From contig JAQMWT010000383.1 of the NCBI GenBank assembly GCA_029834535.1, positions 1 to 64,000 on the forward strand: DNA of 64,000 nt, written 5' to 3'. The stretch comes from Chrysophaeum taylorii. Taxonomy: Eukaryota; Sar; Pelagophyceae; Pelagomonadales; Pelagomonadaceae. Each line of letters starts with the position of its first letter. Positions within the stretch are counted from its first letter, which is position 1. The notes under the pieces are model-generated. The model searched no databases, was not told the origin of the DNA, and saw nothing but the letters and a program-made list of their open reading frames with translations. A program made the position numbers and the translations under genes. Positions 8,285-63,774 of the stretch are shown in pieces.

Positions 8285-8287
8285 TCT

Positions 8288-42848: not shown

Positions 42849-44863
42849 AAAGAAACTCGTAAGTTCGAAGTAGACGTCGGAAAATGCATCGAAAGACCTG
42901 TGAGGTCACCAATTGAAATACGCCCTCGTAAGGCGTGCGCGACGTGGTGCGGGCGCGAGCGACTTAGGTTGGTGATCTCAAGGTCGTGAGATACGTTGCG
43001 GCGCGGAGTGTCGGTGGAAATGACGAGTGTCTTGGTGTTAAAGGCGGCGACGCGAAGAGCATCGAAAAGAGTGTCACGCTCCAGGAGCGAAAGCGCGTGA
43101 TGCGGGTGGTCCGAAGTCAGTGCCAAAAGGAGTGGGGCTCGCGGCTGACCTGTCTGCAATGTAGGGCAGATGGGCGCGTGAGCTGAGATCCCGTGGTGGA
43201 GAGTATCCGGCCTGAAATGCTTGGGGTCCAGTGCGGGAATTCGAAAAGAGGGGTCGCCGAAGGGGAGTGCAGTAGAACCAAGGGCGATGTAAGGGTCAGT
43301 CGTGCTGGGTGCATCCTCAATAGCGGAGATGCTGGGACCAGAGCGGTGAGTGCCGGAGTGACCAGGGTTGCCCTTCGGCGTGTAGAGCATTCGAAGGTGC
43401 GGGCATGTGACATGCGTCCTCAACTGAGGAGTGACGTGCTGAGCGATACAAATGAGGAGTGACGTGCTGAGCGATAAGACGCGTTTGAGGGAGGCAACGT
43501 ACGTGACTTGGGTGGATGTTTGTGGTGGAGCCGGCAGCTCGCATGGAGCGTTTGTCGTGCATTCCAGTGATGCGAAAATGCTTACAGGAGTGGTTCAGTT
43601 GGAGCGAATCTGTGCATAGTGCGCGGAGAATGTTTCCTGGGAGCGCAACGTCGATTTTCCGGAGGCAGCGCAAGCGCGTGGCGTCCAGAAGAGAGCTATG
43701 CAAGGGGACACACAGGACCGAAGTGGTCGCAATGGAATCGTGCATAGTTTGCGGCTGATCGTGTCGATCGGAACTCTCGAAATCTCTGTCTGTTAGTGCA
43801 GCCATGGGGAAAGGTTTCCAGAGGCTTGGTCGCGGTGAGACATAAGGATCGGTAGTCGAAAGGAGTGCGTCCTCTGACTGTGAGTTGGGGAGCGGATGAT
43901 CATGTGCTGCGACTGGTGCTCGTGCGAAGACATCCATCGAATCGTTACATGGTGGTCGCAGATGGGTCCATGCAACCTGCTGAGCAGCGTCATCCAGTGC
44001 ATCCGACCGAGAAGGTGGATGGTGGGTGCAGCAGCAAGCGCCGGTGAGCGGCAGTGCGGGCCTGTCTTCGGGGAGAGAAGGCGGCGAGGTGGAACCAGCT
44101 TCGAAGTGATCGGGAGCTGCTGATCGAGAGATAACGATTAAAGCGGGAATGCCTTGTGAATCTGAGCTGATACCTGCAGGTGCGGCGAGTGCCTGCGAGT
44201 ATGTTGACCGTGGGGCCGTTGACAGCGTGTCTTGTCCTTGTGGATGCAGCATTGCGGGTCATTGGTGGTGCTTGGATCAGGCGGCTGATCTGTAATGGTC
44301 GAGGAGACCATCTTCGAGACTAGTGAAGTGGGTCTTGCTTCTTCGCTGTATGCATCATACCAGGGGACTGAATTATAGGGGATGTTGTCAGTGGCCTGCG
44401 GCTCTTGCGCCCGGTGCATGGAATACGGCGGAGCCTTAGATTGTTGGGTATGGTTGCCATAGTCGATGTAGGCATAATACTCGGGAACATCTCGAGGTGT
44501 CTTGGTCTTTGACTTGTCGAAAGTGGGAACGAGATGGCTTGGTGTTTCTTCGACAAGATTGCTTCCTGGGCCGTTGTGCCCGAAGAGAGAAGAAGCCCTT
44601 ATGCATGTCTTGGCAGCATGATGGTGAGCATGACCATCTGGCAAAGAGCTGTCTTTTGATAGTTCGAAACTTGTCGACTCTCGATGTGGGTGGTCTTGAT
44701 TCTTGGTGGGACTTTGCACGTGGTGATCGTCGCTGGTGGTAGGGGTACGGTCGCCGGTGTTGAATGTGCGCCCTCGCAACTCGGACGCGGGGATGTGGTC
44801 GAGTTGGAATGAACCCGGTAGCTGATAAGGCGAGCGGGTGCAAAGGGGTTCGGGGGGCGCCAA
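42849..44863 (-). pseudogene. Unrecognised frames of element E, part 2
   Basis: Three overlapping frames (42713-43423, 43317-44252, 44138-44863) chain end to end on the minus strand. The sequence is Pro/Ser/Thr/His-rich. One segment, FGHNGPGSNLVEETPSHLVP near 44590-44530, resembles the repeated HDGPGT motif of part 1. A 20-bp direct repeat lies near 43425-43475 (AGGAGTGACGTGCTGAGCGA twice). No enzyme motif was found. I interpret this as decayed coding sequence of the same element. Confidence 0.4.
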
Positions 44864-46525
44864 AGAGGCGAAGAGTGAGTGGGTAGAGGAGGAGGGGCCA
44901 GAGATGGCGGGGGTTTGAGAACAGAGAGACGGAGTGGGTGGTGAACCAGGAGAACCGGGTCCAGGGCATCCGTGGAGGTGGTGATGATACTCGGGGAGAA
45001 TCGGGGGAGAGGCATTGGAGGTTGGTTCGGACGGGGATGAGGGTTGGTTGTGGATGGGGAATGGAGGTTAAAGATGCGATGCAGCATCTTGGGTGGGGTG
45101 GGTGGCATCCAACGAGGTAAGAATGGTTTGGGTGACGGCGTTGGTTTAAAAGTGGGAGTTGCGGATATCAGCGTGGGCAGTTTCGAGTGCCTTGAACTGT
45201 GTGTGGGTGAGATGGAGTTCCGCGTGGGTGGAGACCAGTTCGTCGGCTCGGATGGCGAGCTGGGCAGTGGCGAAATCCAGGGCGGCGTCGGCGATGGTGA
45301 GTTTGTTGGCTGTGGAGGACAAAGCGCCATCCTTGCGAATGAGCACGGTTTTGGTTGCGGCCAATTCCGCGGTTTGGGAGCGGAATGCAGCCGTATTGGC
45401 GGCCAACTCGCGTTGGAGCTCAGACGGAGGTGCATTGGAACTTTGAGAAAGGAGGTGGAGTGTTGCTTGGGTGGAGACGGGGATGGTCGTAGTCGTGGAG
45501 TGCGTAGTCGCGCGGGTGAAGATGCAAATCGGGGGGAACAGCGACTTTCGAAAGGTGATGAAGGTCTGTCAGGAGGGTCCAATGGTTGGGCGGCAGTAGC
45601 TTGAGCCGCGGGAGGAGCTGTGGTAGAAATGGAAGTGCCGGGGCCGTCGTGGCCGTAGGTGGCATGGTCTTGTGGATGGAGAGGATTGTCCGGAGGAGAG
45701 TGACTTGCGGAAGATGATGGATATCGGACAAGGGAATCCGACAGTGGGGCGGCATGAGCTTGGGCCGCGGTGGGGGCTTGGTCAGGGATGAAGGTGCCGG
45801 GGCCGTCATGGCCGTATATGGCATGATCATCAAGGAGATGAGTGGTGCGGCGAGGGGGTTGACGAGGATGTTGGGGAACTTGGATAGGTGGTGTAGCGGG
45901 AGTCGCCGATAGTGGGGAGTTAGGCTCCAGTGAAGGACGTGGAGGCTCCGGTGGGGTTGGCGGAGTGAAGGGAGTAGTGTTTAGTGGTTGTAGAGTGTTC
46001 AACATTGCTGGTGCGATATTCGAACAAGGTGGAGTGTCCTCGTGAATATGGGCTGTGCCAGGTTGTGGAGTAACCTTGGCTATGCCTGGGTCCGGAGGGA
46101 AGGCAGTGGGGTCTGAGACTTTGCCGTGGGGTGTTTGACATCCGGTGTGGTTGTCGGCATGAGGGGGGGTGACCATCGAGATGACCGGGTCTTGGGTCGC
46201 GACTTCGTGAGAAGTTTGCTTGTGCTTAAGAGGAGTTGCCGGAAGAACAGCTGGTTGGGGAGCTTGTTCAAGTTGCTCGTCTTGGCCGAGTTGCTCATCT
46301 TGAGCTTCGATTACAGTGATTTTGGCTCTGAGATCAGCGTAATCAGCGGCGATTCTGGCTTTGAGAATAGCTTGATCAGCGGCGAGTTGATCCAAGAAAT
46401 TAGCTTTGCGCCGTTGGCAATCCGCACGAACTGAGCAAATAAATCGGCTTGGAACTGTTGAATGAGAGCTTGTTGTGTAGCGAATTGCGTCGCTACTTCC
46501 AGACTCGGGACTCGGGGGTCGTGAG
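44864..46525 (-). pseudogene. Element E coiled-coil, proline-rich protein, N-terminal part
   Basis: It starts at the ATG at 46525 (MATHDPRVPSLEVATQF), about 230 bp after X-2 in its own direction. A Gln/Ala-rich coiled coil (46500-46260) is followed by a Pro/Thr-rich part with a repeat near 45830 and 45650 (YGHDGPGT then a PAAQA stretch). After a frame change near 45430 comes a second coiled coil (AANTAAFRSQTAELAATKT, 45146-45405). The start resembles copia-D gag (MATRNQSNQDLRQEL), so it may be a highly diverged gag. It carries no protease or RT signature. Confidence 0.5.
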
Positions 46526-46751
46526 TCGCCATCGTTTTGGGGGTTGCGTTTTGCGCGTTGTTGGTTGCCTTTCGCACATTTTCACACTTTTTCACCAGTA
46601 GCGAGCGATGAGACTTGACTACGGTCTTAAAACTTTCAGGAACTTCAGGAGATTGCTCTTTTCTGGAAATCCAGTTTCTTCGTCCGAGACGTCGATCGAG
46701 ATCGATGTCTTTCGGAGGACGTTTCTCTACCAATACCGGACTGGGTCCAAA
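46526..46751 (-). promoter_or_regulatory. Leader of element E next to X-2
   Basis: Noncoding in its own direction, it begins CTAGGTTTGGACCCAGTCCG then GTATTGGTAGAG. Similar leader sequence follows X at 60111 (minus) and 63935 (plus). That shared leader shows X and leader form one conserved 5' unit upstream of gag-like genes. Confidence 0.6.
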
Positions 46752-46946
46752 CCTAGAGAACAGTAAAAATCAGTGCCTCTGGTAGAGAATGGTGGCAGTG
46801 GTAGTGCTGCCTTTCGTCCTGTCCTCTAACGACACAAAGAGCAGCACGGTGTGCGACATTGCGATTTAGTGGTTGTAGGTGAGTGTGAGGTGGTTAAGGG
46901 GGGAGGGGGGGGGTTCCTAACCCTAAATGGGAGTTTCTATCTCTAC
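46752..46946 (+). repeat. X sequence, left end of copia B (X-2)
   Basis: It runs from CCTAGAGAACAGTAAAAATC to TTTCTATCTCTA, ending 3 bp before the gag ATG. It contains CTAACGACACAAAGAG and CCTAACCCTAAATGG and a G-rich run. Its counterpart at the other end of copia B is inverted (55942-56132). Confidence 0.8.
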
Positions 46947-46949
46947 AAG

Positions 46950-49112
46950 ATGCCAGCCAATCGAGAACTCCAGAAGGAGATAAAAGACCAAGAAGCTCGC
47001 ATAGAGGCAAAGCATACAAGGGAGATGCAAGCACAACAACAAATGATACAAGCACAAGCTCAAGCGCTACAAGCACCCCAAGCACAACTCAGTGCCATGC
47101 AGACACCACCTGCCGTCGTTGCTGCGACTGCTCCCCCCACTCCAGCTCAACAAGACCCCAAGAACAAGGCTAACACCTTTAGTGACCCAACTAGCGCCGT
47201 TCTCATGTCAATGGACTCCGCTCAAGTCACACCCCAAATGCTTTCGTTTCGCGTTATGCAGTTGTTCGTCGAACATCTGGTGCCTGAAACAGGCATAGCG
47301 CAATACTTCTTGCAGGGCTTCTACGCGTGGGAATCCGTCTTGCGCGGATCTAACGATCTAGCTGACGCTCTTCTCCGCCACTGCATCAAGGAATATGACA
47401 AGGACCCCGACAACCACGCTACCGCCGGGAACACGCAAGATGCCCAAGGCCGTTACGTCTACTACAAGGGCGTTTACCGCAAGTTCGGCAAACACTTCCT
47501 GGAGAACGTCTACGAGCCTAAGCTCCAAGAACTTAAAGACCAAGACAAGGACACGACCGATACGACCAAAGGAAAGTTGTATCCGATCACACAACCTCAC
47601 CTCCAAGGAAAAGAAGCCGACTTCATCGTGTACCTCCGCGAGACCGTGCACCCCCTTTTTCGCCGTTTCCTGCACGCTGGTAGCGACTCCGTCAAGCACC
47701 CAGCATACGACGAAATCGATGCACTCGGATCTTCCCATCCGATAGGACTCGAATTTGTGCTCCAAGTTCGCCTCGCACTTGACAAGCACACGGGCCAGAA
47801 CCACATCCACCATGCGCATTATGTTTATAATGCCTTCCTGGACACGCCGTTCAACCCGGAGATCCACGAGCCTGCGCATTATATCGATTATATGCGCCAC
47901 GTTCAGCAACAACTCCGCCAAATTACAGACGATGCCTCTCTCCAACTTCCCGACGACAAGATCCTCAAGGAAATCCACCAGACACTCCGGTTCAAGTACC
48001 CTCCAAGCTTGCTTGACTCCCGCGCCCCAACTCACATCAAGGGCTTCACTCGTCTTGCCAATTGTCTTCGCACCCCCCAAGACTCGCTGTTACTCGACGA
48101 AGACAAGGAAGCGATAAACCATTTGCCCAAGTTGATCGCCCGCATCACGGTTATCTCCACTTTCGAGCGCAACTATTGGGCTCACCTCAAGCCTCATCCA
48201 ACTCTGAACTTCGAGCCGTTGCGATTCGTCACTGACTTTGGTCGTCTGCCGACTAAAGACAAAGATAATCCACGTTTTCGCTCCCGCCGTCATGGTCTCC
48301 ACTTCACCGAAGATGATGATGACACCTCACCCTCTGAAGATGAAATCCCTCCGGATCCTGATGAAGCACCCCCTGAAGACACCGACCCTGTTGCCGTTTT
48401 TCTCACGGAAGCCAACCTCGATCCAGATGACGACACTGCTCTCATCCAACATCTTCACGCCTATCGTAAGAAGCAACTCTCACGCCACCCCAAGAAACCT
48501 CCACCCAAAAAGCCTCCAAATCCTCGCTCCCCGTCGTACTACGACATCAATGACAGCCCTAAGCCCAAGGTCACTCCTGTCACCCCAACCAAGAACAAGC
48601 ACAACCCCCGTGCTTCTCCTGTCACCCCAGACAAACGCGAGCACCCGCACCTTCGCAAGGTCACTTTTCCCACTCAACCGCATCCACCAAAGCCATCTAC
48701 TCCTGACCAACGATTCAAGGTCCCTCTTCGTGATGTTCGTCGCAAGCTCCAGACCATACGGAACCTGAGTCAAGCCGGTCGTCAACACACGTCCAACTCA
48801 GAGCGTATGACCAAGCTCATCAACCTCATCACCACTATCTCCGATGAGATACTTCTCTCCGAGGCCGATTCTGATGCCGCCGAGTTTCTTCAGGTGCTAT
48901 CGTCCGATCCTCAGGATGATCCACCAGATGAGGGCGAAGCCGACGAAAAAGATGACCAAGGCCACCTCGGTTTCTATGATGACCACGGACAGCTAGGCCT
49001 CTACGACGACACCATCCCCGAAATTAATGATGACGATGACTCCGCCGAAGACTACGCAAAACGTCACAGCGACTACATGCGTGCTCTACACCAGAGTCAG
49101 CTTTTTCGCTGA
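46950..49112 (+). CDS. Copia B gag-like protein
   Basis: This is an intact frame of 720 codons from ATG 46950 to TGA 49110-49112. The N-terminal 80 residues are a Gln-rich coiled coil. The central part (residues about 90-470) is conserved in copies C and D: YFLQGFYAWESVLRGSND, YPITQPHLQGKEADFIVYLR, DKHTGQNHIHHAHYVYN and FERNYWAHLKPHP. A Pro/Lys-rich basic stretch (near 48480-48730) and an acidic C-terminus follow. No CCHC knuckle is seen; the basic stretch may bind RNA. The stop overlaps the next start as TGATG, suggesting coupled reinitiation of the pol frame. Confidence 0.8.
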   Translation: MPANRELQKEIKDQEARIEAKHTREMQAQQQMIQAQAQALQAPQAQLSAMQTPPAVVAATAPPTPAQQDPKNKANTFSDPTSAVLMSMDSAQVTPQMLSFRVMQLFVEHLVPETGIAQYFLQGFYAWESVLRGSNDLADALLRHCIKEYDKDPDNHATAGNTQDAQGRYVYYKGVYRKFGKHFLENVYEPKLQELKDQDKDTTDTTKGKLYPITQPHLQGKEADFIVYLRETVHPLFRRFLHAGSDSVKHPAYDEIDALGSSHPIGLEFVLQVRLALDKHTGQNHIHHAHYVYNAFLDTPFNPEIHEPAHYIDYMRHVQQQLRQITDDASLQLPDDKILKEIHQTLRFKYPPSLLDSRAPTHIKGFTRLANCLRTPQDSLLLDEDKEAINHLPKLIARITVISTFERNYWAHLKPHPTLNFEPLRFVTDFGRLPTKDKDNPRFRSRRHGLHFTEDDDDTSPSEDEIPPDPDEAPPEDTDPVAVFLTEANLDPDDDTALIQHLHAYRKKQLSRHPKKPPPKKPPNPRSPSYYDINDSPKPKVTPVTPTKNKHNPRASPVTPDKREHPHLRKVTFPTQPHPPKPSTPDQRFKVPLRDVRRKLQTIRNLSQAGRQHTSNSERMTKLINLITTISDEILLSEADSDAAEFLQVLSSDPQDDPPDEGEADEKDDQGHLGFYDDHGQLGLYDDTIPEINDDDDSAEDYAKRHSDYMRALHQSQLFR

Positions 49113-51042
49113 TGGTTGCCGACGACGCCTGTGCCGCCAACCACATCTTGCTCAATCAGGCACCAAGCCTCACGATGAAGAATTTTCCGACCTCATCAAC
49201 CATTTCACCCAGAGTCGCAGATTTTCTTTGTGCCACTTACACTCCAGAAAAGACACCCACGAAGACTAACTCGCTGCACGGATGCAATGGACCCGGCACT
49301 GGAACTTCTTTAATTGACGGTGGCGCATCATTTTGCTTCACTCGCACAATCCAACACTTTGTTCCCGAGTCCATACGACGGATTCCCGAACACACCATTC
49401 GTATGGGAAGAGGCACCTTAACCAGCCACTTCATCGGTGTCAAACCGTTGTATTTGCAGGCCGCAGGTCTCTCCTCAAAGGATATCAAAGACTCCACAGG
49501 TTACGTTTTATATCTCGTCTTTCTGGTCGTCCCGCAATTCAGAAAAGGTCTACAGGTTATAGCGACATCTCAGCTCGAAGCTCTGAACGTCCAAGCAACC
49601 GACCCGCCACTGCCACACGAACCATACTTATACGAGCTTATGAACACGTCAACCGCAGATCCCCACGATTATAAGACGCTTCTAGGCAAAACCGCAGTAG
49701 TTCTCGCCAATCGCCAAACTAATGGTCTATTGTCCCTGCCATCCCATCCCAAGCAAACATTCCGCGCTGTGCTTAGTTTTCACACCGGAACGAGAATGTC
49801 ACTCAAGGATGAGCTCGCACACATCACGCAGAATGTCGCAAAGACACGCTCGCAATCCCACATGTTAGATTTCGCAAAGTTACAGCATCATTCTATATTT
49901 CTGTCGGAACTCATCAGCCTCCCGCATACTGTCGTCCAATATGCATTCACTGGCTCAGCGGACCTCTCTGTGCAAGCACAACCCCCTCCGCTAAACACAG
50001 CCATTATTGCAGGTGGACTTCACCAAGAAGGCTTTGACTCTTTTCGCAAACGATTCGACAAACGCATCACTGTCGTGGTCACCTGTGAAATTAACCCTAT
50101 TATGCGCGCCCGCGCGCAACAACTCTTCCCGCACGCTCAGCATTATGCGGATCTAAGAAAGCTCACTGCCGCTCTGCAAACCGGCAAAATACGACTACCT
50201 CAACTCGACTTGGCAGTATTCACCTTGCCGTGTCAACATCTGAGTGTAAAAAAGAATATGACGGCTATGCCACTCCGGTGACCGCCGACCTTTTCGTCAA
50301 AGAACAAATCCGCTTTGTTCGTTGCACGCTTCCGACATACACCATTGTCGAGAATGTACCCCCCAACCCCCGAACTCATCACGAGTACACTGAACTCGCC
50401 AAATGCTATCAGCGCAACGGTTACTTCAGACACTCCGGTGTCTACAATGCCTCCGCTTTTGGCGACGTCATAAGCAAGAACCGCTATCTCGCTGTATATG
50501 CCCGACACCCGCTCACAGGCTACAACCTCGAGAAAACCGCTTCTCCTTGGTTAATATCTCCTCCGAGCATGGCTCCCCTCCTGGACCCCCGTCACACTAT
50601 CCCCGACGATCTCTGGATCGCCAACCCCGCCCTTCATGGCACAGTGACCCGCTCCACATTGGACTATTACCAGAACAAGGCCACCTTCTCATACAAACCC
50701 GCCCACGCCTCCAAACTCTCGATTTCCGAGAATGCACGCATCTGCCAAATGCTCGCGCGCTTGAAGAAGCCCTTCACGGATTTAGGACTCGACGCCGACG
50801 GCACCCCCTATGCCTCGATGACCACTATCTCCCACCTCTTGGCATTCACATTGCTGCACATTCACTTGTCGCAACATCCTACTCTCGCCGCCTGGAACAC
50901 CCTCCGCTGTTTTCATGCCTCAGAGTCACAATGTGCTTGCCATTTGGATGGAGCCATCACCGGCACTGTCGCTACTGCCGTCGCACGTGGCTACTTCCCG
51001 TGCGCCTCCCTCACCCTCCATTCCAGGCCCCCTCATATATAG
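49112..51042 (+). pseudogene. Copia B protease and cytosine-5 DNA methyltransferase
   Basis: It starts at the ATG overlapping the gag stop. The aspartic protease motif SLIDGGASFCFT is near 49305. The methyltransferase shows motif I AIIAGGLHQEGF (near 50002), VVVTCEINPIMRARA with the motif II Glu (near 50078), motif IV FTLPCQHLS with catalytic Cys (near 50220), motif VI YTIVENVPP (near 50338) and motif VIII SKNRYLAVYAR (near 50472). One frame change lies at an A6 run near 50250; copy C is open there. About 180 further residues to 51042 could include target recognition. It would methylate DNA cytosine; activity is untested. Confidence 0.75.
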
Positions 51043-51141
51043 GACTGTTCCCACCAACCCGCAGTCTCCTCCCCGACGCACACCTTTTCCATGGATGTCC
51101 CCAAGGGCACCGCCTTTCTGGTCCTAGAATAAACCAATTCG

Positions 51142-52250
51142 TTGGCCGCCGCTCACAGCTGCTCGCGCCCCTCCACGTGGGTCCACTATATGAATCGCTC
51201 GCATCCCGGCTTTGCCGCGATCGATTCAAACGGGCGAATCACACTCGATGACCCCACGGGACTCATAATGTCCAAAGCACGACCCACTTACGCGGACTAT
51301 GTCGGCCACATCGGATACACGCTTCAGAAAAGCACCAAGTGCTACTCGGTCACTGGCTCGTACCCAACCAACACGAGCTACTCCAACGCACTACTGCCGA
51401 TCTCTCCCGACCACATCCGCTATGCGACTCTCAATGAAATCGCAAAGTTCGGACACCACTCGGACCCGGAACTGCTACGCCTGTTCCAACAGCACCCGCC
51501 GTACTTCGCGTTCAAGGCACTGGCCAACGCCGTCCCGCACAACATGCTGCAGGCCAAGTACAGCGCTGTCCTCGCACTCCACGAATCGCATCACCATGTG
51601 AACTTTCACATCGAATGGGCAACCATACGCAATGGCATTCCCAGCCCCGGAGACATCAATCAGGTTGCAGAATTCTTCTTGAACATCTCCAGCCGTCTCT
51701 TAGCAGAGGAGGACCTCAACCTCACCTCCCTCTTCAATGCCGTAGCAGATGCTCACCATGCTGCGATCCGCAAGCCAAGCAAATCGAAAAACCTCGAGAC
51801 GCTACTCGCCGAGGCCACAGTTGCTAAAGTCCGAGTTGACAAGCGACCCAGCCCCCCTAGCGCTTCGACTGCCGCTCTGCCCCCCTTGCACAAGCCCGGC
51901 ACCATTCAGCACGCGCAAAGAGTGCTTTTGGTCACTCGCTGGCACCGCATCCACCACCAGCAACCAGAGATTCTTCGCCGCACGATTGCCGCCAATGTAA
52001 CGAATCTCCGCCCAGGTGATGATCGGTATCTGCAAGACTGCAGCGAATGCAAGCGCTGTCAATCGCATGTCAGCTTCCGTCACAAGAACACTTCCTGGTC
52101 ACAGGATGAACTAGCCTATGCTCCTGGCCAACATCTCCATATGGATGTCTCATACCCGAGCATCAACAAATGCTATGGTGGCTTTCGTTACATCATGCAT
52201 TTTGTGTGTATTATCTCGGCACACAAATGGCCGTACATTGCCTCATGAAT
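51142..52250 (+). CDS. Copia B integrase, zinc region and first part of the core
   Basis: This open frame of 368 codons is separated from the methyltransferase by about 100 bp with a frame change. After an N-terminal region of unknown role (GRITLDDPTGLIM, HMLQAKYSAVLALHESHHH) come the HHCC zinc signature (RWHRIHHQQ near 51937; DCSECKRCQSH near 52035) and the first catalytic Asp in HLHMDVSYPSINKCYGGF (near 52132). The frame changes near 52205, and the core continues in the next entry. Confidence 0.82.
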
Positions 52251-54841
52251 GCCTAGCATCACCTAGTCGAGCAACGTTCTGGCTATGGCATTCGCATGTG
52301 ATGGTCAAACAGGTGATTATGTTAGTTAGTGACTTCCTGAGGAAACTAGACGCGCAGGACGTTCTGGCTGGCATCCTCTACGTGGTCAATGTGATTAAGG
52401 TCGAATTCGATGTAAGTGTGAAAATCATATCGTCTGATGCCTTTTCCACTTTCCGCTCCGAAGCTTTTCATCCGCTCAAGGTGCAACTCGGTATCCAGTT
52501 TCAAATCATTGGTCGCCACCTACACCAGCGGAACTTCGCGGAAAACATCATTAAGGAAAACACACGAGGCACTGTAGTCCGCCTCCTCAACCTTCGCAGT
52601 GTCCGCATCGAAGGAAAGCCTATTGCCGCCGAGTATTATCACCCGTTTGCTCTGCTGCATAAGATCCAAGCCGACAATCAGCGCTCTCATGGACTGCCCT
52701 CGCGCACTAACATGACCTGCACCGTCCCCCGGCGCATCATGTCACCCATGGCACCGCTCCTGAAGCTCCTTCCCTTTGGCGAACCTGTCACCTTTGTCTA
52801 TCCTCACAGTCACAAATTGGAACCCTCCAGCGTCTCCGCCTCTTATCTTCATAGCAACAATTATCTTCCGAACCTCCCCGGCACAGACCGCTTTATCCGT
52901 GATGTTCATAGCTCTATCCTGCTTGTACATCAGGGGCGATATGGAAAAATCGTCACCTCTAACGACTTCCACGTTGATGCAGACATGCCAGTCAACCGCA
53001 ACAAGGAGATCGAACGGATCAAAGCACTCACGCAGATCCCAACAGAGGCACGGCAAGAGGACCCGCTTCCAGCTATAAGCGAACAGCAAATGCCGGAAAT
53101 CAGACAGGAATCGAAAAATGAGGGCGAGACTCATGATGACGACCAGGATGATAAACCCGACGATGACGACGAGCACAAAGAACCGGATCCAAGTCCCGTC
53201 AGCGACGAGACACCTGAACAGGATTTTTCGTTCCTCAACCGGCCACCTCCGCCGGATGGTAGCATTCCGATGCCCAAGCGACAGGATCGCCTAGAGGTCG
53301 TTCTCGACGATTCAGGTTTTACTCCAGTTCTTGTGCATCGCAACCAGAGTGACAAACTCAAGGCAGATCTCAAGGACGAGCGCGGATTCCGCATTTCCAA
53401 GGATCAACTCTATATCGTGAAACGTGTCGACGATGGAAAACTTTTCACCAGACGCATTATCGCTTCAGAGTATGGTCGCAACTGGAAATACCAGCAGGAG
53501 CAATCCACGGCTCGCGCCACAGCCAACATGTCCAGCACATTGATGTTCCTCATCAGTGTCAGCGCTCTGCACCAGGGCCATGCCGTCAGCATCGCATCTG
53601 ATCTCAACATTAGAAGGGATGCTAAGCCGCCAAATGATGTCCCGAAAGGATGTCTCCTAGCAAATACCACACAAGACTATGGTATCATGGGCGGCACTGC
53701 ACTGGATCTGCAGAGAGAAACCGACGCAGAACTCTTGTACGTTGACTTCCCAAGGAAGCCGTACCACTCATCTGTATTGGTCGACCACCTGGACAACGAC
53801 AATTCTGTTCTCGAGAACTATGTGTGCCACGACGAACTGTCACCGGCAGAGTACTATGCGCGTCAATGGAACCAAGAATTCTGTTGTATGAGCTCCTCTC
53901 TCTTATGGGACATCTCAGCGCATCAGCACTACCACTTAGCTTCTCGTCACAGACATGCCTTCATGCATGATTCTGGCGAACTCGGACACCTCTTTCTAAG
54001 TCAAAGTGATCCGAATCAAGATATTCTCCAAGAAGTCATGGACTATGACTTGCAGCACATCGACCATGTCGTGTTACAACTCGTGACTGCTGAAGATATT
54101 GTCTATGAGCCTGAGAAGATTGTCGAACTCAAAGGACTCAGCGAAGAAGATAAGTTAAAGCATATCGCTTCGATTCGCAAAGAAATTGAAGGATTGTGCT
54201 CCAACGGCGTCTTTAAGCTTGAACCTTTACCGCCAGACCGTTCGTCTATCTCGACGAAACTCGTGCTGAAGATCAAGTATTTTGCTGACGGCACCCCAGA
54301 CCGCTATAAAGCTCGTCTAGTTGCCCGAGGTTTCTTGGCACGTGTCGGCATTGACTTTTATGCCACATCTTCACCGACCGCGATGCTCGCCACCAACCGG
54401 TTATTGCTCGCCATCGCTGTGAAGCACAGGCTCCCGGTCGCGCACGCAGACATTCCCCAGGCATTCATCCAATCGGCACTCGATCGCCCGGTATGGATAG
54501 ACTTACCTCGAGGAATACGTGTCTCGCACAACCTTATCCAGCAGATACAGAAAAACCACCCAGAGTCCAAGTTAGCTCTCCGACTCGTCAAGGCTCTCTA
54601 TGGTCTCAAACAGTCAGCTTTGTTGTGGAACATTAAGCTCGACTCGTTTCTTCGACAACATGAGTTCGAACGCTCACAAGTCGACACTTGCCTCTATATC
54701 AGTTGGGATCGATCTATCAACAGATGGGCTCTCCTATCCGTCTCAGTCGATGACCTATTGATCACTGGCACCAACACTGCTAAAATCACGTCTCTTCGCA
54801 CCGCACTGGAGAAGGAATGGCAAAGGTACATGGCACGATAA
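52251..54841 (+). CDS. Copia B integrase core end, linker and reverse transcriptase
   Basis: The integrase core is completed by IISSDAFSTF (second Asp, near 52425) and NFAENIIKENTRGT (Glu, near 52533). A long linker follows, with a strongly acidic run (DDDQDDKPDDDDE, near 53138) and a ~300-residue region of unknown function. RT occupies the end: FADGTPDRYKARLVARGF (near 54285), HADIPQAFIQSALD (near 54436), LVKALYGLKQSALLWN (near 54588) and catalytic VSVDDLLITG (near 54740). The frame ends at 54841 after a frame change. All catalytic aspartates are present. Confidence 0.88.
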
Positions 54842-55898
54842 CATCAGATCCTTCCTTGGTATCGATGTACACTACAATGTCTCCGCTGGTCACCTCACTA
54901 TGAATGTAGCCGCGAAGATAAACAAGATGCTCGCCGAGCATAAACTCAACCTCCATACTACTGACGTCCCCTACTCGGACATTCTCACTCAAAAACCTTC
55001 TGCTAAGCTTCTCTCCGACTTGGCTCCCACTTTAGAAATATTACGCAACAATTTTCCTCACTACTGTGGCACTAGTATTTACTTGTCTGTCACATGTCGC
55101 CCAGATATCACCACGTTGTGCAACAAATGCTGCAAGGGTATGCACAACCCTGTGCAGACCCATCTTCTGCACTTATATGTTTTACTTCGCTATGTGAAGG
55201 GTAATCCGAATGATTCTCTCGACTATTCATCCGGTAGCCCCTATATTACGCCCTTTATTCAGCATCGGATCGGAAACTACCCAGAGTTGCATCACCTTCG
55301 TTCGCCCATTATTTGTTTTACTGATGCCAGTTTCGCTGACCGTTCTGACCCTCGCTTAGGATCACATTCTGGTGCATGTATTTTCGTATTTGGCAGTCTC
55401 GTATTCTGGTCTAGCAAACGCCAGACTCTTACTGCCAAAAGCACCATGGAAGCCGAACTCATCGCCGCTAGCGCAGCAGCTGATGAATGTCAATGGTTCC
55501 ACAAGATCTTCTCCTCTCACCCTTATCTGTTTTCGCGTGATCAACCTCACGCTATTCCCCTGCCTAATGACAACGCTAGCGCATTACATGTCGCTAATCA
55601 CCCTAAAATCAGTGCTCCTTCTCGTCATATCAATTTACGTGAATTTCGCATTCGCGACTACCAGGCCAACTTGGTCATTCGTCCTCTCTGGTGTCCTACT
55701 CACTACCAGGTCGCCGATCACTTTTCGAAGCTTCTTCCACGCAACTTATTCCACAAGTTCAAAAACGCCTACGGTGTCCACTCTACCTCTTCTTCACCAC
55801 CATCTCATCAAGTTGCTCTTTCTGCTACTCTTCCACCGTACGACTCCGTCCATAACACTCTCTGTGTTCTTGTCGATGGCAAGTCGCTTCCTGCTTAG
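54842..55898 (+). CDS. Copia B RT end and RNase H
   Basis: This continues the polyprotein in another frame (YNVSAGHLTMNVAAKINKML, near 54870). RNase H is typical of copia: ICFTDASFADRSDPRLGSHS (near 55308-55367), SSKRQTLTAKSTMEAELIAA (near 55410), HINLREFRIRDY (near 55628) and HYQVADHFSK (near 55700). It ends TAG at 55896, 46 bp before the inverted X copy. RNase H degrades the RNA strand after reverse transcription. Confidence 0.9.
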
Positions 55899-55941
55899 TT
55901 TGATCCAGATTTCGCTCACCGAGTTCAATCTGCGAGGGCGC

Positions 55942-56132
55942 AGAGATAGAACATTTGAACTAGGGTTAGTATCATAGGGTTAGGGTTAGCTCTCTTACTT
56001 TTAGCACTTTTTGATTTAAGAAAACGCTGTGTTATTCACACCGGCTATCCTCGTTATCGGAGACACATACGAGGGCAGACTACCACTGCTCTCTCTCTGC
56101 TGAAGGGCAACACAGTTGAAATTACTGTTCTA
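55942..56132 (-). repeat. X sequence, right end of copia B, inverted (X-5)
   Basis: It begins AGAGATAGAAC and ends near TTACTGTTCT, reverse-complementary in layout to X-2. Matching landmarks in order are ATAGAACAG, CAGTGGTAG, CTGCC, CGGTGTG and CTAACCCTA. Identity is clearly lower than between the two ends of copia C. Three TAGGGTTAG units lie at 55964-55990. Confidence 0.6.
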
Positions 56133-56149
56133 TACACCAACACGCCGGA

Positions 56150-56421
56150 GACCTCAACACTCAAGGTCAATGCGGACTTGGGGTTGGCTACGCGTCGCCA
56201 CAATACGTGTTCACGCTCGCCAAGCCTCTCAACTTGAGGCTGGCTAGTTGCCTTATGATAATAAGATACTCTTTACAGTGAAAACAGTGCGACGTCAGCA
56301 GAATGACATCACTTGACATCACAAGTAAAGAGGGAAAAGGCGTCCCGTTGAACGGGCGCAAGCCTTAAGAAGTGGGGTAAGGCTTAGGGAGGAGGAGTTG
56401 CCGCCACAGGGGCCATTACAT
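56150..56421 (-). repeat. Gypsy-type solo LTR, diverged
   Basis: On the minus strand from 56421 it reads TGTGGCGGCAACTCC, then CTAAGCCTTACCCC, TGATGTCA, ATCATAAGGCAAC and the hairpin CCTCAAGTTGAGAGG, in the same order as the G1 LTR. It interrupts the protease start of copia D right after LHGCNGP. The inner boundary near 56150 is approximate. Confidence 0.72.
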
Positions 56422-58410
56422 CCGTGCAGAGAGTGAGCCTTGGTGTGAGACTTACCTGGAGTGAAAACAGTGCATATGAAGTCTGCGAATGTGGAAGAAA
56501 TTGTCGATGAAAGTGGGAATTTGTCCATCGAAAGGCTTGGTGCCTGATTCAGTGGAGATTGGTTGGCGGCAGAGGCGTCGTCGTCAACCGTTACCGAAAA
56601 AGCTGGCTTTAGTGAAGAGCACATATGTAATCTTGATGACGTTGTACATAATCTTCAATTGAGTCTTCTGGTTGAGCCTCGGTTTCGGGAACTTGATCGT
56701 CGTATAAGCCGAGTTGACCGTGATCATCGTACATGGAGCCGTCGTCTATAACGCCCTCAGCAGCTGGATCATCCGGCGGGCGGTCGGAGGAGAGAAACTG
56801 GAGGAATTCGGCGGCGTTGTTATCTGCCTCAGGTAGGAGGATCTCGTCGGAGATGGTAGTGATGAGCTTGGTGAGTTTGGTCATACGATCAGGATTGGAG
56901 GTGTGTTGCTGGCCGGCTTGACTGAGGTTGCGGATAGTCTGTAGCTTGCGGCGGACATCACGAAGGGGAACCTTGAACCGTTGATCCGGAGTGTGAGGCT
57001 TTGGAGGATGGGTATGGGTGGGAAAGGTGACTTTGCGGAGGTGCGGGTGTTCGCGTTTGTCGGGGGTGACAGTGGGAGCACGCGGGTGTGGCTTTTGCTT
57101 GGTGGGGGTGACCGGTGTTGCTTTGGGCTTTGGGCTGTCGTTGATGTCATAGTACCACGGCGAACGATGATTGGGGGCTTTCTGGGTTTCTTGACGTGGC
57201 GTGAAATTTGTTTCTTTCGATAAGCGTGGAGATGTTGGATAAGAGGTTGATCCTCATCTGGATCGAGTTCGGCGTCAGTAAGGAAGGCGTCGACGAGGTC
57301 GGCGTCGTCGGGAGAGTCTTCATCTGGATCCGGAGGTGTGTCATCTTCATGGGGTGGCGCGTCATCATTATCTTCGGTGAGGTGAAAACCGAGGCGGCGA
57401 GGACGAATTCGTGGATTGTCTTTGTCCTTGGTGTGCAGACGACCGAATTCCGTGACAAAGCGGAGAGGCTGCAGTTGAGCGAATGGTGGGGCTTTAGGTG
57501 AGCCCAGAAGTTGCGCTCGAAGGTGGGAATAACCGTGATGCGCGCAATCGACTTTGGCAGGTGATGGATTGCGGCTTTATCTTCATCGAGAAGTTGAGAG
57601 TCGTTTGGAGTACGAAGACTGTTGGCAAGACGAGCGAGGCCTTTGATGTGTGTGGGGGCGCGAGAGTCGGGAAGACTGGAGGGGTATTAAAAGCGGAGGA
57701 CTTTGTGTATCTCCTCTGTGATGGTTTTGTCGTGGAGTTGGGGTGAGGAACCGTCGGTGTTTTGACGGAGTTGTTGCTGGATGTGGAGCATGTAGTCGAT
57801 GTAGTAGGCGGGTTCATGGAGCTCCGGGTTGAAGGGAGTGTTCAGATACGAATTGTACACGTAGTGGGCATGGTGGACATGGTTCTGTCCAGTATGCTTG
57901 TCGAGTGCGATGCGAACTTGGTGAACAAATTCGAGACCAATGGGGTGAGTCGACCCGAGCTTGTCAATTTCGTCGTAGGCTGGATGCTTGACGGAATCAC
58001 GACCGGTGTTCAGGAAACGGCGGAACAGAGGGTGCACAGTCTCGCGGAGGTACACGATAAATTCTGCTTCTTTGTCCTTAAGGTGCGGTTGCGTGATGGG
58101 GTAAAGCTTGATTCCGGATACTTTTTCTTGATTTTGGAGTTCCGTCAGCTTGACCTTGTAGACGTGTTCGTATAAGGTTTTGCCGAACTTGCGGCGAACG
58201 CCTTGGTAATATACCAAGTTACCTTGAAAGTCTTGCGTGTTGCCGTTGGTGGAGTGAGTGTCGGGATCTTTGTCGTACTCAGCGGTGCAGTGGCTAAGAA
58301 GAGCGTCGGCGCTGTCGTTGGAACCGCGCAGAACAGATTCCCATGTATATAAGTTCTTGAGAAAATATTGGGTGATGCCGGTTTCTGGCATGAGGTGCTC
58401 GGTGTCGAGG
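56422..58410 (-). pseudogene. Copia D gag (C-terminal part) and protease start
   Basis: This is the minus-strand homologue of copia B gag. From 58405 it reads HLMPETGITQYFLKNLYTWE, then YPITQPHLKDKEAEFIVYLR and DKHTGQNHVHHAHYVYN (down to 57687), then continues in further frames (57494-57817, 57147-57458, 56881-57150, 56609-56884) with the same Pro/Lys and acidic tail. The start of the protease frame (ASAANQSPLNQAPSLSMDKF, near 56590-56530) is cut by the solo LTR at 56421. Multiple frameshifts mark it as decayed. Confidence 0.82.
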
Positions 58411-58974
58411 TCTGAAGAACGATAGCGACAAAAGTGCCTGGGATGACGTGCGTTAGACGATTGTTGCCACTGAGGATCGCAGCGGGGCAAAGATAGCGGA
58501 AACACAAGCTGGTACATATGATGGCGGTGTACCAGACGTCTGATGAGAACATGGCCTTTGGGCAGATATGTTGCATGGTGACCAGGGTATGACGATGGTC
58601 GGAGTCGACAGAATCCAAAACAGGCGTAAACAGGTTTGATGCGAACGTGGGTGTTTGGTTTTTGTGGCGCGAGCAAGTTGCCATGGGCACGACCGCGTCC
58701 TGTACGCGAAGATGGAAGACTTCGGACGCGCCAGCGGTGTAAGGAACGAACACAGGTAGACCAGGCTGCTGTATGCCAGCCTGCTGTGACAGATAAGAAA
58801 GTGGCCCGTTTTCGCAGTCGCAAGAACGAAATTGCCATATGGGCCAACGTTGGAGGAGCAAGCGGCGAGCTTCGCTTGTCATACTCGAATAGGCTGCGGT
58901 AGAAGTTGGAGACAGTGGCAAAACAGTTGTGGCACGTAAGAACGTTGCAGATAGCGTCGCGGGTGCTGAACACG
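58411..58974. other. Unassigned segment inside copia D gag
   Basis: It lies between resumed gag D (58410) and a copia A-type RT fragment. On the minus strand LCFRYLCPAAILSGNNRLTH near 58500-58440 recalls the CPAAIL block of copia A integrase. The remainder shows no recognisable motif. It is probably part of the same composite insertion as 58975-59737. Confidence 0.4.
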
Positions 58975-60111: not shown

Positions 60112-60284
60112 CCTAGAGTGCAGTAAAAATCACTGTGTTCCTCGGTAGAGTCGTGCAGCGGTAGGGCTGCCCTTTTTGTCCTGTTCCTAACGACAAGGAC
60201 AGCACGGTGTTTTTAAACACTGCGATTTCTGGGTTCTTAGTGTGTGGTGGTGAGACTAACTCTAGATATGAATTTTCTATCTCC
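60112..60284 (+). repeat. X sequence, left end of copia C (X-3)
   Basis: It runs from CCTAGAGTGCAGTAAAAATC to TTTTCTATCTCC. By eye it is roughly 85-90% identical to the reverse complement of 63766-63938 over about 172 bp. It contains a GTGTTTTTAAACAC hairpin. It sits between divergent gag genes: D at 60039 (minus) and C at 60286 (plus). Confidence 0.88.
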
Positions 60285-60285
60285 A

Positions 60286-62286
60286 ATGGGAAATGCCCCA
60301 CCTCCAACCGTCGCTGCTGCGACTCCTCCTCCTATTCCGGCACCCCAAGTTCCCTTCTCCAACACCAAACCAAAGCTCACCACCTTCACAGACCCCCCTA
60401 GTTCCGTTCTCAAGTCCATGGATGGCGCTCAAGTTGCGCCTCAGATGCTCTCCTGCCATGTCTGGCAACTGTTCACAGAGCACCTCATGCCAGATACCGG
60501 CGTCACCCAATACTTCGTCAAGAACCTCTGCACATGGGCACCCGTCCTACGTGGCTCCAACGACTTTTCTGAAGCTCTTCTTAGGTACTGCATCACCGAA
60601 TACGACAAGGATCCACACCTCCATGCCACTGCCGGTAATACCCCAGACTGCCCAGGTCACAAGGTACACTACCAAGGCGTCTACCGCACATTCGGTAAGG
60701 ACTTCTACGAAACGCCACGAAACGAAGTTCCAAGAGCTCGAACATCTCGCTGGGTAAGCGCTATCCCATCACACAGCCGCATCTGAAGGGTAAAGAAGCA
60801 GACTTCGTGGTCTACCTCCGTGAGACCGGGCACCCCTTGTTCCTCCGCTTCCTACACGCTGGCTGCGATTCCGTTAAGCATCCTGCTTACGACGACATCG
60901 ACAAGCTTGGGTCGACTCACCCAATTGGTCTCGTGTTTGTTAATAAAGTTCGTATAGCGCTCGACAAGCACACCGGCCAAAATCACGTCCACCACGCCCA
61001 TTACGTCTTCGATTCGTATTTAGAAGCCCCATTCAACCCGGAGTTCCATGAGCCCGCTCACTACTTTGACCACATGCTTCATGTTCAACACCAACTCCGC
61101 CAATCACCGATGATCCTTCGCTTCAACTCAGCGACAACACCATCCTTGATGAAATACACAAAATACTCCTTTTCAAATACCCCTCCAGTCTCATTGACTC
61201 ACGCGCCCCTACCCACATTAAGGGCTTCGCCCGTCTCGCCAACTGCCTTCGCACACCAAATGACTCTCAGCTTCTCGACGAACAAAGCGGCAATCCATCA
61301 CCTGCCAAAGCTCATTGCTCGCACCACTGTCATCTCCACCTTTGAGCGGAATTTTTGGGCGCATCTCAAGCCCCACCCAAGCGCCAACTTCGAGCCTCTT
61401 CGCTTCGTCACGGACTTCGGCCGTCTGAACACCAAGGACAATCCTCGCGTCCGTACTCGGCGCCGTGGTCTCCACCTTAACGAAGATGACGATGAAGCTT
61501 CACCTCCTGAAGATGAGGTCCCACCTGATGAAGATGACGACCCTCCCGACGACTCCGACATCGTCGGCGCCTTCATCGCTGAAGCTCACCTTCATCCTGA
61601 AGAGGATCAACCCCTGATCCAACACCTTCACGCTTATCGCAAAAAGCAACAACCTCGCCATGCGAATAAGCCCAACAAGCCTCCTCATCCTCGGTCACCG
61701 TCGTATTATAACATCAATGACAGCCCTAAGCCCAAGGCACCCCCGACCACCCCCACCAAGCAGAAACCAAAGCCTCGTGTTCCCACCCGTCACCCCTGAC
61801 AGACGCGAACACCCGCACCTCCGCAAAGTCACCTTTCCCACACAGACCCATCTTCCAAAACCGCATACCCCTGACCAACGGCTCAAGGTCCCTCGTCGTG
61901 AAGTTCGCCGCAAGCTGCAGACCATCCGCAATATCTGCGAGGCCGGCAAGGGCAACACGCATAATAAGGACCACATGGCTCGCCTCACCAGCACCATCAC
62001 GACTATCTCCGACGAGATTCTTTTCTCTGAGGCAGATCACGACGCCGCCGAGCTCCTCCAGCTTCTCTCCGCCGACCCGCCACCGGATGATACAGCTGCA
62101 GGGGGCGTTGTAGACGACGGATCTGTGGATCCTCAAGTCGGTCTGCTATATGACGATTCTGATCAACTCGGCCTATACGATGACCAAGTTCCCGAATCTG
62201 ACCTGCCTCGAGATTCAATGGAGGATTACGTCCAACGGCATCAAGACTATAGCAAAGCCCTTCAACAGAGCCGACCTTTTCGGTGA
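60286..62286 (+). pseudogene. Copia C gag (frameshifted)
   Basis: It begins MGNAPPPTVAAATPPPIPAP at 60286, so it lacks the N-terminal coiled coil of gag B and gag D; X joins inside the ancestral gag. The core matches gag B: YPITQPHLKG (near 60770), DKHTGQNHVHHAHYVFDSYL (near 60963) and FERNFWAHLKPHP (near 61342). Frame changes lie near 60715, 61110, 61270 and 61790. The last part (REHPHLRKVTFPTQ onward) is open to the TGA at 62284-62286, which overlaps the next ATG as TGATG, as in copia B. Confidence 0.82.
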
Positions 62287-63774
62287 TGGTTGCCGACGGC
62301 GCCTGTGTCGACAACCCACAACTGAAGAATCAGGCATTTCGTCTATCGCTGGATAAACTCCCAACATCCTCGACTAATATCTTCCAGAGTCGCGAGCTTC
62401 ATTTCTACTGCCTTTACCCCTGGCAAGTCTCGCACGAAGACTCACTCCCTTCATGGAAGCAACGGTCCTGGTGCAGAATTTCATTGCTTGACGGAGGCGC
62501 TTCCTTTTGCTTTACTCGAACACCGCAGGGCTTGGTTCCCGGAACAACCCGCCGCATTCCCGAACACATCATCAGGATGGGCCGCGGAACCCTCACCAGT
62601 AGCTTCATTGGCGTCAAGCCGTTGTATTTGCCGGCAGTAGGTCTCCCGTCCACTGGCACAACTGGCTCGACAGCCTATGTCTTTTATACTTGGTCTTCCT
62701 CCTTGTTCCAGGCTTTCGACCAGGTTTGCAGGTTTTTGAACGTCGCAGCTAAAGGCACTCAATGTACGGGCCACGGACCCGTCGCTTCCGCATTCACCTT
62801 ACCTCTACGAACTCCTGGCGGACTCAACATCAGATCCACATGACTACAAATCCCTTCTTGGCGCCACGGCTGTGGTCATTGCTCATCGACAATCCAATGG
62901 CTCACTGTCTCTGCCATCCTACTCGGCAGCTGCTTTCAGCCGTGTGGTGAGCTTCCACGCTCGCCGTAAAACGCCTCTCAAGGATGAGCTTACCAACATC
63001 ACTCGGAAGGTCGCTAAGGCTCGTTCGAAGCCTGATTCCCTGGATTTCGCAAAGCTACAGGCTCACTCGTCCTTCCTGACTGAGTCGTATCGGCTCCCTA
63101 GTCCCTACTTGGAGTATGCACTCACAGGCGGCGCGGATCTCTGCGTCTCAACGCAGCCGCCCCCACTGCTTGTCGTCATCATCGCCGGCGGAATCCATCA
63201 AGAAGGCTTCGCATCTTTTCGCAAACGATTCGACCAACGACTTATTGTCGTAGCCACCCGCGAGATCAACCCCATCCTCCGTGCTCGTGTACGACGCCTG
63301 TTTTCAGACGCACAGCATTTCGGCGACCTCCGCAAACTCAATGCCGCTCTTCAGACTGGCAAGGTTCGCATGCCCCTCTTTGACATAGCCGTCTCCACAC
63401 TTCCGTGCCAGCACCTCGGTGTCATGAAGAACGATGATGGCTACGTCACCACCGATCTATTCGTCCAGGAGCTAGTTCGCTTCGTTTGGAGCACACTTCC
63501 GACATACACCATTGTCGATAATGTTCCTCCGAATCCTAAGACCCACCACGAATACAAGCAACTAGCTCAGCATTATCACCGCATGGGCTACTTCCACCAC
63601 TCCGGTGTTCACAATGGCTCCGCCTTCGGTGGCGCCATAAGCAAGCACCGCTCTCTTGCAGTCTTTGCTCGGCACCCCTCGGACACTTACGATCTCGAAA
63701 AACCCGCCTCTCCCTGGCTCGTCTCCCCACCGAGCATGGTTCCCTTTTTGGACCCTGATCCAACTAGAGATTGA
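62286..63774 (+). pseudogene. Copia C protease and cytosine-5 DNA methyltransferase
   Basis: It starts at the ATG in TGATG. The protease motif SLLDGGASFCFT is near 62486. After a frame change near 62800 the frame is open to 63774. Methyltransferase motifs are VIIAGGIHQEGF (near 63177), VVATREINPILRARV (near 63249), motif IV STLPCQHLG with catalytic Cys (near 63393), motif VI YTIVDNVPP (near 63504) and motif VIII SKHRSLAVFAR (near 63640). In motif VI the usual Glu is Asp, which may weaken activity. Unlike copia B, motifs I to VIII lie in one uninterrupted frame. Confidence 0.76.

What the first reader, a model, noticed from the sequence alone, without database searches (positions are those of the whole stretch)
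49112..51042. Cytosine-5 methyltransferase embedded in a Ty1/copia polyprotein
Seen: between the aspartic protease (SLIDGGAS) and integrase of copia B lie C5-methyltransferase motifs I, II, IV (LPCQ), VI (ENV) and VIII in the correct order and spacing. Known: retrotransposon-borne DNMTs have been reported in dinoflagellates and charophyte algae, in DIRS-like and Ty3/gypsy elements. A copia carrier is new to me. Inference: the element may methylate its own cDNA or modify host silencing.
Basis: partly seen in the sequence, partly recalled or inferred. Interest (0 to 1): 0.95.

Follow-up and report, generated by a model that had tools for sequence, protein, structure and literature searches.

The report
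Algal copia retrotransposon carrying a methyltransferase
A family of more than a hundred jumping-gene copies in the marine alga Chrysophaeum taylorii carries, inside its own replication polyprotein, a domain related to the enzymes that methylate cytosine in DNA; the domain shows the marks of purifying selection and is likely used to mark the element's own DNA copy, which would be a further, probably independent capture of such an enzyme by a retrotransposon.

Summary
Between protease and integrase of a Ty1/copia Pol lies a divergent cytosine-C5-methyltransferase (C5-MTase) domain. The window copy (MTase core about 50.0-50.5 kb) is a decayed, 5'-truncated copy, frame-broken between motifs IV and VI; its pieces barely match PF00145 (best E 0.049). 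The family settles it: a second, diverged copy in the window passes the Pfam cut-off (E 1.7e-5); 12 of 13 uninterrupted domain translations match PF00145 (best 4.2e-10); one copy reads protease-MTase-integrase-RT in one 1,952-aa frame. At least 134 MTase loci were found; 110 of 138 integrase loci have the MTase about 990 bp upstream. Median dN/dS is 0.21; the catalytic Cys is kept in 31 of 31 copies. AlphaFold with DNMT2 rows gives a C5-MTase core (pLDDT 76). Open: motif I is altered, motifs IX/X and a target-recognition domain were not recognised, and no CpG or other C-to-T signature was found, so activity and target are unproven. Known retrotransposon MTases sit in LINE, DIRS and Gypsy elements; a copia carrier in a stramenopile looks new, although one 2025 sentence mentions 'LTR Copia'.

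The parts
46946..49112 (+). gag frame of the window copy (frame 46830-49112; homology to three other copies begins at 46946, so the 5' LTR and leader are missing)
   Evidence: no Pfam family passes in it
49110..49114 (+). TGATG: gag stop TGA overlapping the ATG of Pol; Pol lies in the -1 frame of gag
49112..49840 (+). N-terminal part of Pol with the protease motif SLIDGGAS (49307-49330); end approximate
   Evidence: protease by motif only, no Pfam match
49997..51042 (+). C5-MTase-derived domain: motif I position 50000-50017, II 50081-50095, IV (PCQ) 50222-50236, frame break between 50237 and 50260, VI 50344-50358, VIII 50437-50494, C-terminal part up to the stop at 51042
51133..52561 (+). integrase part: HHCC 51937-52059, first Asp stretch 52135-52158, ISSDAF 52427-52444, FAENIIKEN 52535-52561; interrupted by an insertion of about 97 bp near 52231-52333
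   Evidence: rve only weak (E 0.0061) in copy L033
54206..54823 (+). Ty1/copia reverse transcriptase (RVT_2, E 4.8e-37)
55323..55466 (+). RNase H motifs DASFADR and MEAELIA (name recalled, no Pfam match)
55941..56134 (+). 3' LTR, similar to the 5' LTRs of copies L033 (960-1167) and L034 (961-1157), whose ends are TAGAGA...TCTCTA
   Evidence: end points are my reading
60241..62286 (+). second, diverged copy of the same element type: gag frames (broken)
62286..62843 (+). second copy: Pol start and protease motif LDGGAS (62487-62504)
63127..63774 (+). second copy: MTase domain, motifs I position to VIII in one open frame (62740-63774)
   Evidence: PF00145 E 1.7e-5, 24.8 bits, cut-off 22

Best explanation
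This is a decayed copy of a large Ty1/copia LTR-retrotransposon family of Chrysophaeum taylorii whose Pol polyprotein carries a C5-MTase-derived domain, under purifying selection, between protease and integrase; the domain likely rides in the virus-like particle and is predicted to methylate the element's own nucleic acid, most probably the cDNA, before integration. Shown: homology of the domain, its fixed place in the polyprotein, its copy number, purifying selection, and the retained Cys of motif IV, ENV of motif VI and Arg of motif VIII. Inferred: release by the element's protease, catalytic activity, the cDNA as substrate, and the benefit (passing as host-like or protected DNA, or entering chromatin in a chosen state).
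For: PF00145 in 12 of 13 uninterrupted domain translations, best 4.2e-10; TIGR00675 12 of 13; PHROG DNA methyltransferases 13 of 13. One open frame of 1,952 aa with PF00145 (1.1e-7), rve (0.0061, under the cut-off) and RVT_2 (1.6e-38) in that order. 134 merged MTase loci on 106 contigs; 110 of 138 merged integrase loci have an MTase match upstream on the same strand, median gap 989.5 bp. Median dN/dS 0.21 over 433 of 465 pairs; 0.10 between L033 and L034. Motif-IV Cys in 31 of 31 copies, motif-II Glu 30 of 30, ENV 29, 30 and 29 of 31, motif-VIII Arg 30 of 31. AlphaFold model with DNMT2 rows: pLDDT 76.0, pTM 0.74; the 50 listed Foldseek rows and the 50 listed VIA rows are C5-MTases. A copia of the same genome without PF00145 in its 1,720-aa frame aligns only from residue 673 on. 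MTase domains of SymbioDIRS-Dnmt3 retrotransposons methylate CG in yeast (PMC5890265, part 4).
Against: Motif I is altered. PF00145 covers only up to about profile position 175 in the element copies; motifs IX/X and a TRD were not recognised. CpG o/e of the element is 1.01-1.03 and third-position transitions are about as common at CpG (11.3%) as elsewhere (10.2%); no C-to-T neighbour context stands out: no trace of self-methylation. The first AlphaFold model, without DNMT2 rows, was meaningless (pLDDT 35.5), and DNMT2 rows may steer the second. Close pair L033/L035 has dN/dS 0.45 over the domain. Expression was not examined.
Confidence: 0.5

Rival explanations
1. The domain methylates RNA rather than cDNA, for example the genomic RNA or a tRNA primer inside the particle.
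For: No methylation-type decay of the DNA copies; the weak profile-profile match is to DNMT2, a tRNA methyltransferase family (hhalign probability 25, E 7.6e-4); the SymbioLINE MTase tested in yeast did not methylate DNA and RNA was suggested as its substrate (PMC5890265, part 4).
Against: DNMT2 was the only family compared this way apart from the host DNMT5-like protein; the listed best structural matches are DNMT1-type and bacterial DNA MTases; no RNA-binding feature was identified.
Confidence: 0.2
2. A pseudoenzyme: the MTase fold is kept for nucleic-acid or protein binding or as a structural part of Pol, without methyl transfer.
For: Motif I lacks FxGxGG and motif VIII lacks the canonical Gln; no TRD or motifs IX/X recognised; no methylation trace.
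Against: Cys of motif IV in 31 of 31, Glu of motif II in 30 of 30 and ENV nearly fixed: catalytic residues would be free to drift in a pseudoenzyme.
Confidence: 0.2
3. The MTase acts in trans on host chromatin, for example to mark or unsettle host silencing, not on its own cDNA.
For: Many copies; the host has its own DNMT5-like enzyme with SNF2, a methylation system that could be fed or disturbed.
Against: Fusion inside Pol puts the domain in the particle with the cDNA; many other copia elements of this genome do without it (1670 RVT_2 candidates, 150 scored; one fetched example).
Confidence: 0.07
4. Artefact: chance motifs, or a host MTase gene that happened to lie where a copia inserted.
For: The window copy alone is weak (E 0.049) and the window is rich in retroelement pieces.
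Against: Same place and spacing in 110 loci, one open frame through MTase, integrase and RT, selection.
Confidence: 0.02

Closest known systems
KnitGypsy-Dnmt3 of the charophyte Klebsormidium nitens (PMC5890265, passages)
   Same: LTR retrotransposon with a C5-MTase in the Pol frame, under purifying selection, many copies
   Different: Ty3/gypsy, with a repeat layout like DIRS; DNMT3-related MTase. Here Ty1/copia order and RVT_2, and an orphan MTase; relation to DNMT3 was not tested
SymbioDIRS-Dnmt3 and SymbioLINE-Dnmt of Symbiodinium (PMC5890265, parts 1, 2, 4)
   Same: retrotransposon-borne C5-MTase in high copy; SymbioLINE's is also an orphan lineage
   Different: DIRS (tyrosine recombinase) and LINE, not copia; SymbioLINE shows CG depletion, this element does not
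Host DNMT2-like gene (L037) and DNMT5-like gene (L036/L059) of the same genome
   Same: PF00145; the latter also SNF2
   Different: single-gene context with motifs closer to canonical; profile comparison finds nothing for L036 and E 7.6e-4 for a DNMT2 alignment: neither is an evident donor
Other Ty1/copia elements of the same genome (example L039)
   Same: RVT_2, rve, RT 34% identical over 289 columns, integrase side aligned
   Different: no PF00145 in the 1,720-aa frame; alignment to L033 starts at residue 673, after the MTase

Membership tests
C5 cytosine methyltransferase (PF00145) | Profile match over the curated cut-off | tested here: met
   12 of 13 uninterrupted domains match at E<=0.01, best 4.2e-10; second window copy 24.8 bits against 22; first window copy alone below it
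C5 cytosine methyltransferase (PF00145) | Catalytic Pro-Cys in motif IV, ENV in motif VI, Arg in motif VIII | tested here: met
   Cys 31 of 31, Pro 28 of 31, ENV 29/30/29 of 31, Arg 30 of 31
C5 cytosine methyltransferase (PF00145) | AdoMet motif I FxGxGG (form recalled; seen in the DNMT2 rows) | tested here: not met
   IIAGG in nearly all copies
C5 cytosine methyltransferase (PF00145) | Rossmann core with the C5-MTase order of strands | tested here: met
C5 cytosine methyltransferase (PF00145) | Target-recognition domain and motifs IX and X | tested here: inconclusive
   no profile match beyond motif VIII; that part is conserved but barely modelled
C5 cytosine methyltransferase (PF00145) | Methyl transfer to cytosine | not testable with these tools
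   needs expression; indirect DNA signature absent
Ty1/copia LTR retrotransposon | RVT_2-type reverse transcriptase | tested here: met
   window copy 4.8e-37; L033 1.6e-38
Ty1/copia LTR retrotransposon | Order protease-integrase-RT in Pol | tested here: met
   L033: protease motif 79, rve 1016-1110, RVT_2 1686-1933 in one frame; integrase D-64-D-34-E spacing
Ty1/copia LTR retrotransposon | Long terminal repeats | tested here: met
   3' LTR of the window copy similar to 5' LTRs of L033 and L034; no copy with both LTRs was fetched
Ty1/copia LTR retrotransposon | tRNA primer binding site | tested here: inconclusive
   a candidate stretch follows the 5' LTR in L033-L035, but no matching tRNA among 19 of 65 tRNA matches checked nor by pattern
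Retrotransposon-borne DNMT (as in PMC5890265) | MTase within the coding region of a multicopy retrotransposon | tested here: met
Retrotransposon-borne DNMT (as in PMC5890265) | Purifying selection on the MTase | tested here: met
   median dN/dS 0.21, against 0.15 protease and 0.10 integrase
Retrotransposon-borne DNMT (as in PMC5890265) | CG depletion (reported there for SymbioLINE only) | tested here: not met
   CpG o/e 1.01-1.03; transitions 363 of 3208 at CpG, 883 of 8633 elsewhere
Retrotransposon-borne DNMT (as in PMC5890265) | DNMT3 relationship (SymbioDIRS and KnitGypsy) | not tested
   no DNMT3 set was at hand; no tree was built

The most novel reading that the evidence does not exclude
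The first Ty1/copia lineage with a captured cytosine-C5-methyltransferase, in a further major eukaryotic lineage (stramenopiles), taken from an orphan MTase with a rebuilt AdoMet motif that is neither the host's DNMT2 nor its DNMT5: an independent capture that works on the element's own cDNA or RNA, with a target other than CpG.
Probability: 0.45. Interest if true: 0.82.

Novelty: new variant of a known kind. Interest (0 to 1): 0.72.

Why it matters
Cytosine methylation normally silences retrotransposons, so elements that carry their own MTase are a paradox. Capture by a further retrotransposon class in a further lineage, kept under purifying selection in a family with at least 134 MTase-domain loci, says that the domain repeatedly gives an advantage, and offers an independent case in which to find out what it does. 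The host has a small genome (71 Mb) and is cultured, so methylome and cDNA tests are practical.

Tried and rejected
Rejected: chance or artefact (fixed spacing in 110 of 138 integrase loci). Not used as evidence: the first AlphaFold model (pLDDT 35.5). Led nowhere: homologues outside this genome (7995 candidates scored in each, none significant; that search needs shared 5-residue words and similar length, so relatives in other algae are not excluded); viral contigs (44 stretches matched a pattern, none was confirmed by tblastn); the tRNA primer; CpG and C-to-T context tests gave no support for self-methylation of DNA; hhalign to the host DNMT5-like protein found nothing. PDB sequence search with the domain profile: HhaI first, at E 0.028, suggestive only. 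The SSU rRNA search of the genome did not complete; the organism was named instead through a 100% identical protein on a contig of the same length. Not claimed: that any copy is active; in L033 the RT motif reads VDG where the window copy has VDD. Not done: a tree of MTase families; a search of other eukaryote genomes (none held).
Full report
What was checked. The finding names a C5-MTase between protease and integrase of a copia at 49112-51042. Frame translations and ORF lists show the named motifs between 49307 and 50494, in two frames. Pfam gives RVT_2 downstream (E 4.8e-37), but for the MTase only E 0.049 on the second piece and nothing on the first. The window copy alone would not carry the claim.

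The family carries it. The window lies in an assembly of 70.8 Mb in 697 contigs. PF00145 has 57 matches there at E<=0.001, all over the cut-off, 123 of 474 candidates being scored; two of them are host genes (L001/L037 and L002/L036). The second MTase piece of the window finds 144 matching rows (135 of 519 candidates scored), the protease-to-motif-IV piece 110 rows (101 of 374). Merged, the 144 rows make 134 loci on 106 contigs. Of 138 merged integrase loci (from the 150 rows listed of 154) 110 have an MTase match upstream on the same strand, at a median gap of 989.5 bp (10th-90th percentile 981-1360), and 110 of the 134 MTase loci have an integrase downstream within 6 kb. The 28 integrase loci without a listed MTase may be truncated, may lack the domain, or may have been missed, as only the best candidates are scored. 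Near-identical contigs exist in the assembly (for example C25 and C521 rows), so loci are not all independent copies.

Architecture. One copy (L033) has a single open frame of 1,952 aa with the protease motif at residue 79, MTase motif positions 310-475, HHCC at 956-996, rve 1016-1110 (E 0.0061, under the cut-off) and RVT_2 1686-1933. L034 and L035 have open frames of 1,123 and 1,868 aa with PF00145 at 2.9e-8 and 5e-7. Of 29 distinct loci examined, 12 have the MTase domain uninterrupted. With the second window copy they make alignment A1: 12 of 13 members match PF00145 (best 4.2e-10), the only Pfam family at E<=0.01, 12 of 13 TIGR00675 dcm, and 13 of 13 two PHROG 'DNA methyltransferase' families.

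Second copy in the window. At 60241-63774 (+) lies a diverged copy; its frame 62740-63774 passes the PF00145 cut-off (24.8 bits, E 1.7e-5).

State of the window copy. Homology to L033, L034 and L035 begins at 46946, just before the gag ATG. The sequence before it, 46600-46945, is another repeat: 39 further near-full matches were listed (40 of 465 candidates scored), most ending at the same point, and its end reads as an LTR end in reverse orientation (my reading). A 3' LTR lies at about 55941-56134. The MTase is broken between motifs IV and VI and has stops at the end of the domain, and the integrase has an insertion of about 97 bp. It is a 5'-truncated pseudogene. The gag stop and the Pol ATG overlap as TGATG: this holds for 9 of 9 distinct junctions read (10 hits, one cut off at a locus edge), but the search pattern itself asked for Leu, Met or Val before the Met, which favours that result. 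Pol lies in the -1 frame of gag in the window copy, L033 and L034. Stop-start reinitiation or a -1 frameshift is predicted, not shown.

Selection and residues. Codon comparison of 31 copies (29 loci and the two window copies, codons taken from separate tblastn pieces) gives a median dN/dS of 0.21 (IQR 0.16-0.28) for residues 305-690 over 433 of 465 pairs; pairs with dS outside 0.1-1.5 or under 60 codons were dropped. It is 0.15 for protease (345 pairs), 0.10 for integrase (63), 0.11 for RT (2 pairs) and 0.25 for residues 691-950 (354). Between L033 and L034, both open over the domain, it is 0.10 at dS 0.83. Against: between the close pair L033/L035 it is 0.45 over the domain; part of L035 looks read in another frame there (alignment). 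The motif-IV Cys is kept in 31 of 31, motif-II Glu in 30 of 30, E, N and V of ENV in 29, 30 and 29 of 31, motif-VIII Arg in 30 of 31. Motif I is IIAGG, not FxGxGG.

Boundaries and origin. A copia of the same genome (L039; RVT_2 3.5e-42, SH3_retrovirus, weak rve, no PF00145 in its 1,720-aa frame at E<=1; sequence upstream of that frame was not examined) aligns with L033 over residues 673-1219 (24% identity) and 1645-1933 (34% over 289 columns), with no significant alignment before 673. The MTase thus looks like an insertion whose C-terminal border lies near residue 672. The host has a DNMT2-like gene and a DNMT5-like gene: PF00145 in L036 and SNF2 in L059, in one open frame of 2,086 aa. Neither is an evident donor: hhalign gives probability 25 and E 7.6e-4 against a DNMT2 alignment, with 147 collinear columns, and nothing against L036.

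Function. Composition does not show self-methylation. Element CpG o/e is 1.01-1.03; two host-gene loci have 1.32 and 1.39, other stretches of the window 1.03-1.34. Third-position transitions are 363 of 3208 (11.3%) at CpG and 883 of 8633 (10.2%) elsewhere. C-to-T rates by neighbour are 1.5-2.4%, with no standout context. CpG self-methylation is therefore not supported; another target, RNA, good repair or no activity remain. The commitment to cDNA rests on the place of the domain in Pol and on the activity of SymbioDIRS-Dnmt3 domains in yeast (PMC5890265, part 4).

Host. The protein of L037 is 100% identical to 'hypothetical protein CTAYLR_008533 [Chrysophaeum taylorii]' on a contig of 102,313 bases, the length of contig C634. 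Chrysophaeum belongs to Pelagophyceae, Ochrophyta, Stramenopiles. The genome paper gives 71 Mbp on 702 contigs; a term search of its main text found 'transpos' and 'repeat' 0 times (PMC10366177, passages only).

Prior art. PMC5890265 (parts 1, 2 and 4 of 7 and passages): MTases in LINE and DIRS elements of Symbiodinium and in a Gypsy element of Klebsormidium; copia of Symbiodinium lacks them. PMC12344493 (passages): DNMT3 members in 'LTR Copia and DIRS families', citing that paper; whether a true copia case is meant could not be decided. PMC9998398 (passages): DNMTs and copia expression in diatoms, no fusion in the passages seen. PMC6338049, PMC12477816, PMC10449503 and PMC11453091: passages only, no copia with a C5-MTase in them. 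That no copia fusion of this kind was found in print rests on searches of an open-access library; other listed papers were seen as listings only.

Verdict. Real, in essence rightly interpreted, a new variant of retrotransposon-borne MTases; activity and purpose are open.

Noticed in passing
   Followed up: yes
window 49110-49114 and 62284-62288: The gag stop overlaps the Pol ATG (TGATG), suggesting stop-start reinitiation or a -1 frameshift; seen in 9 of 9 distinct junctions read, with a pattern that favours it.
   Followed up: partly
window 44138-46945 (-): Long minus-strand frames without Pfam match abut the window copy head to head; the repeat ends in an LTR-like end at 46945 and recurs in the genome.
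   Followed up: partly
window 56319-59279 (-): A minus-strand gag fragment about 75% identical to the gag of both MTase-copia copies, beside a fragment of another copia RT at 59408-59803 (RVT_2 E 1e-11).
   Followed up: partly
window 27487-31282 (-): An ordinary copia in pieces (RVT_2, SH3_retrovirus, gag_pre-integrs) with no PF00145 in the frames scanned.
   Followed up: partly
window 22721-24205 (+): An integrase core frame (rve E 2.3e-11) of another retroelement.
   Followed up: no
window 5596-12510: Several 0.3-1.4 kb stretches repeated in the same orientation at 88-95% identity; no Pfam match in the two frames scanned there.
   Followed up: no
window 13933-16815 and 38269-41198: A 2.9-kb direct repeat, 86.5% identical.
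   Followed up: no
L036 and L059 (contig C621): Host DNMT5-like gene: PF00145 and SNF2-related domain in one 2,086-aa open frame.
   Followed up: partly
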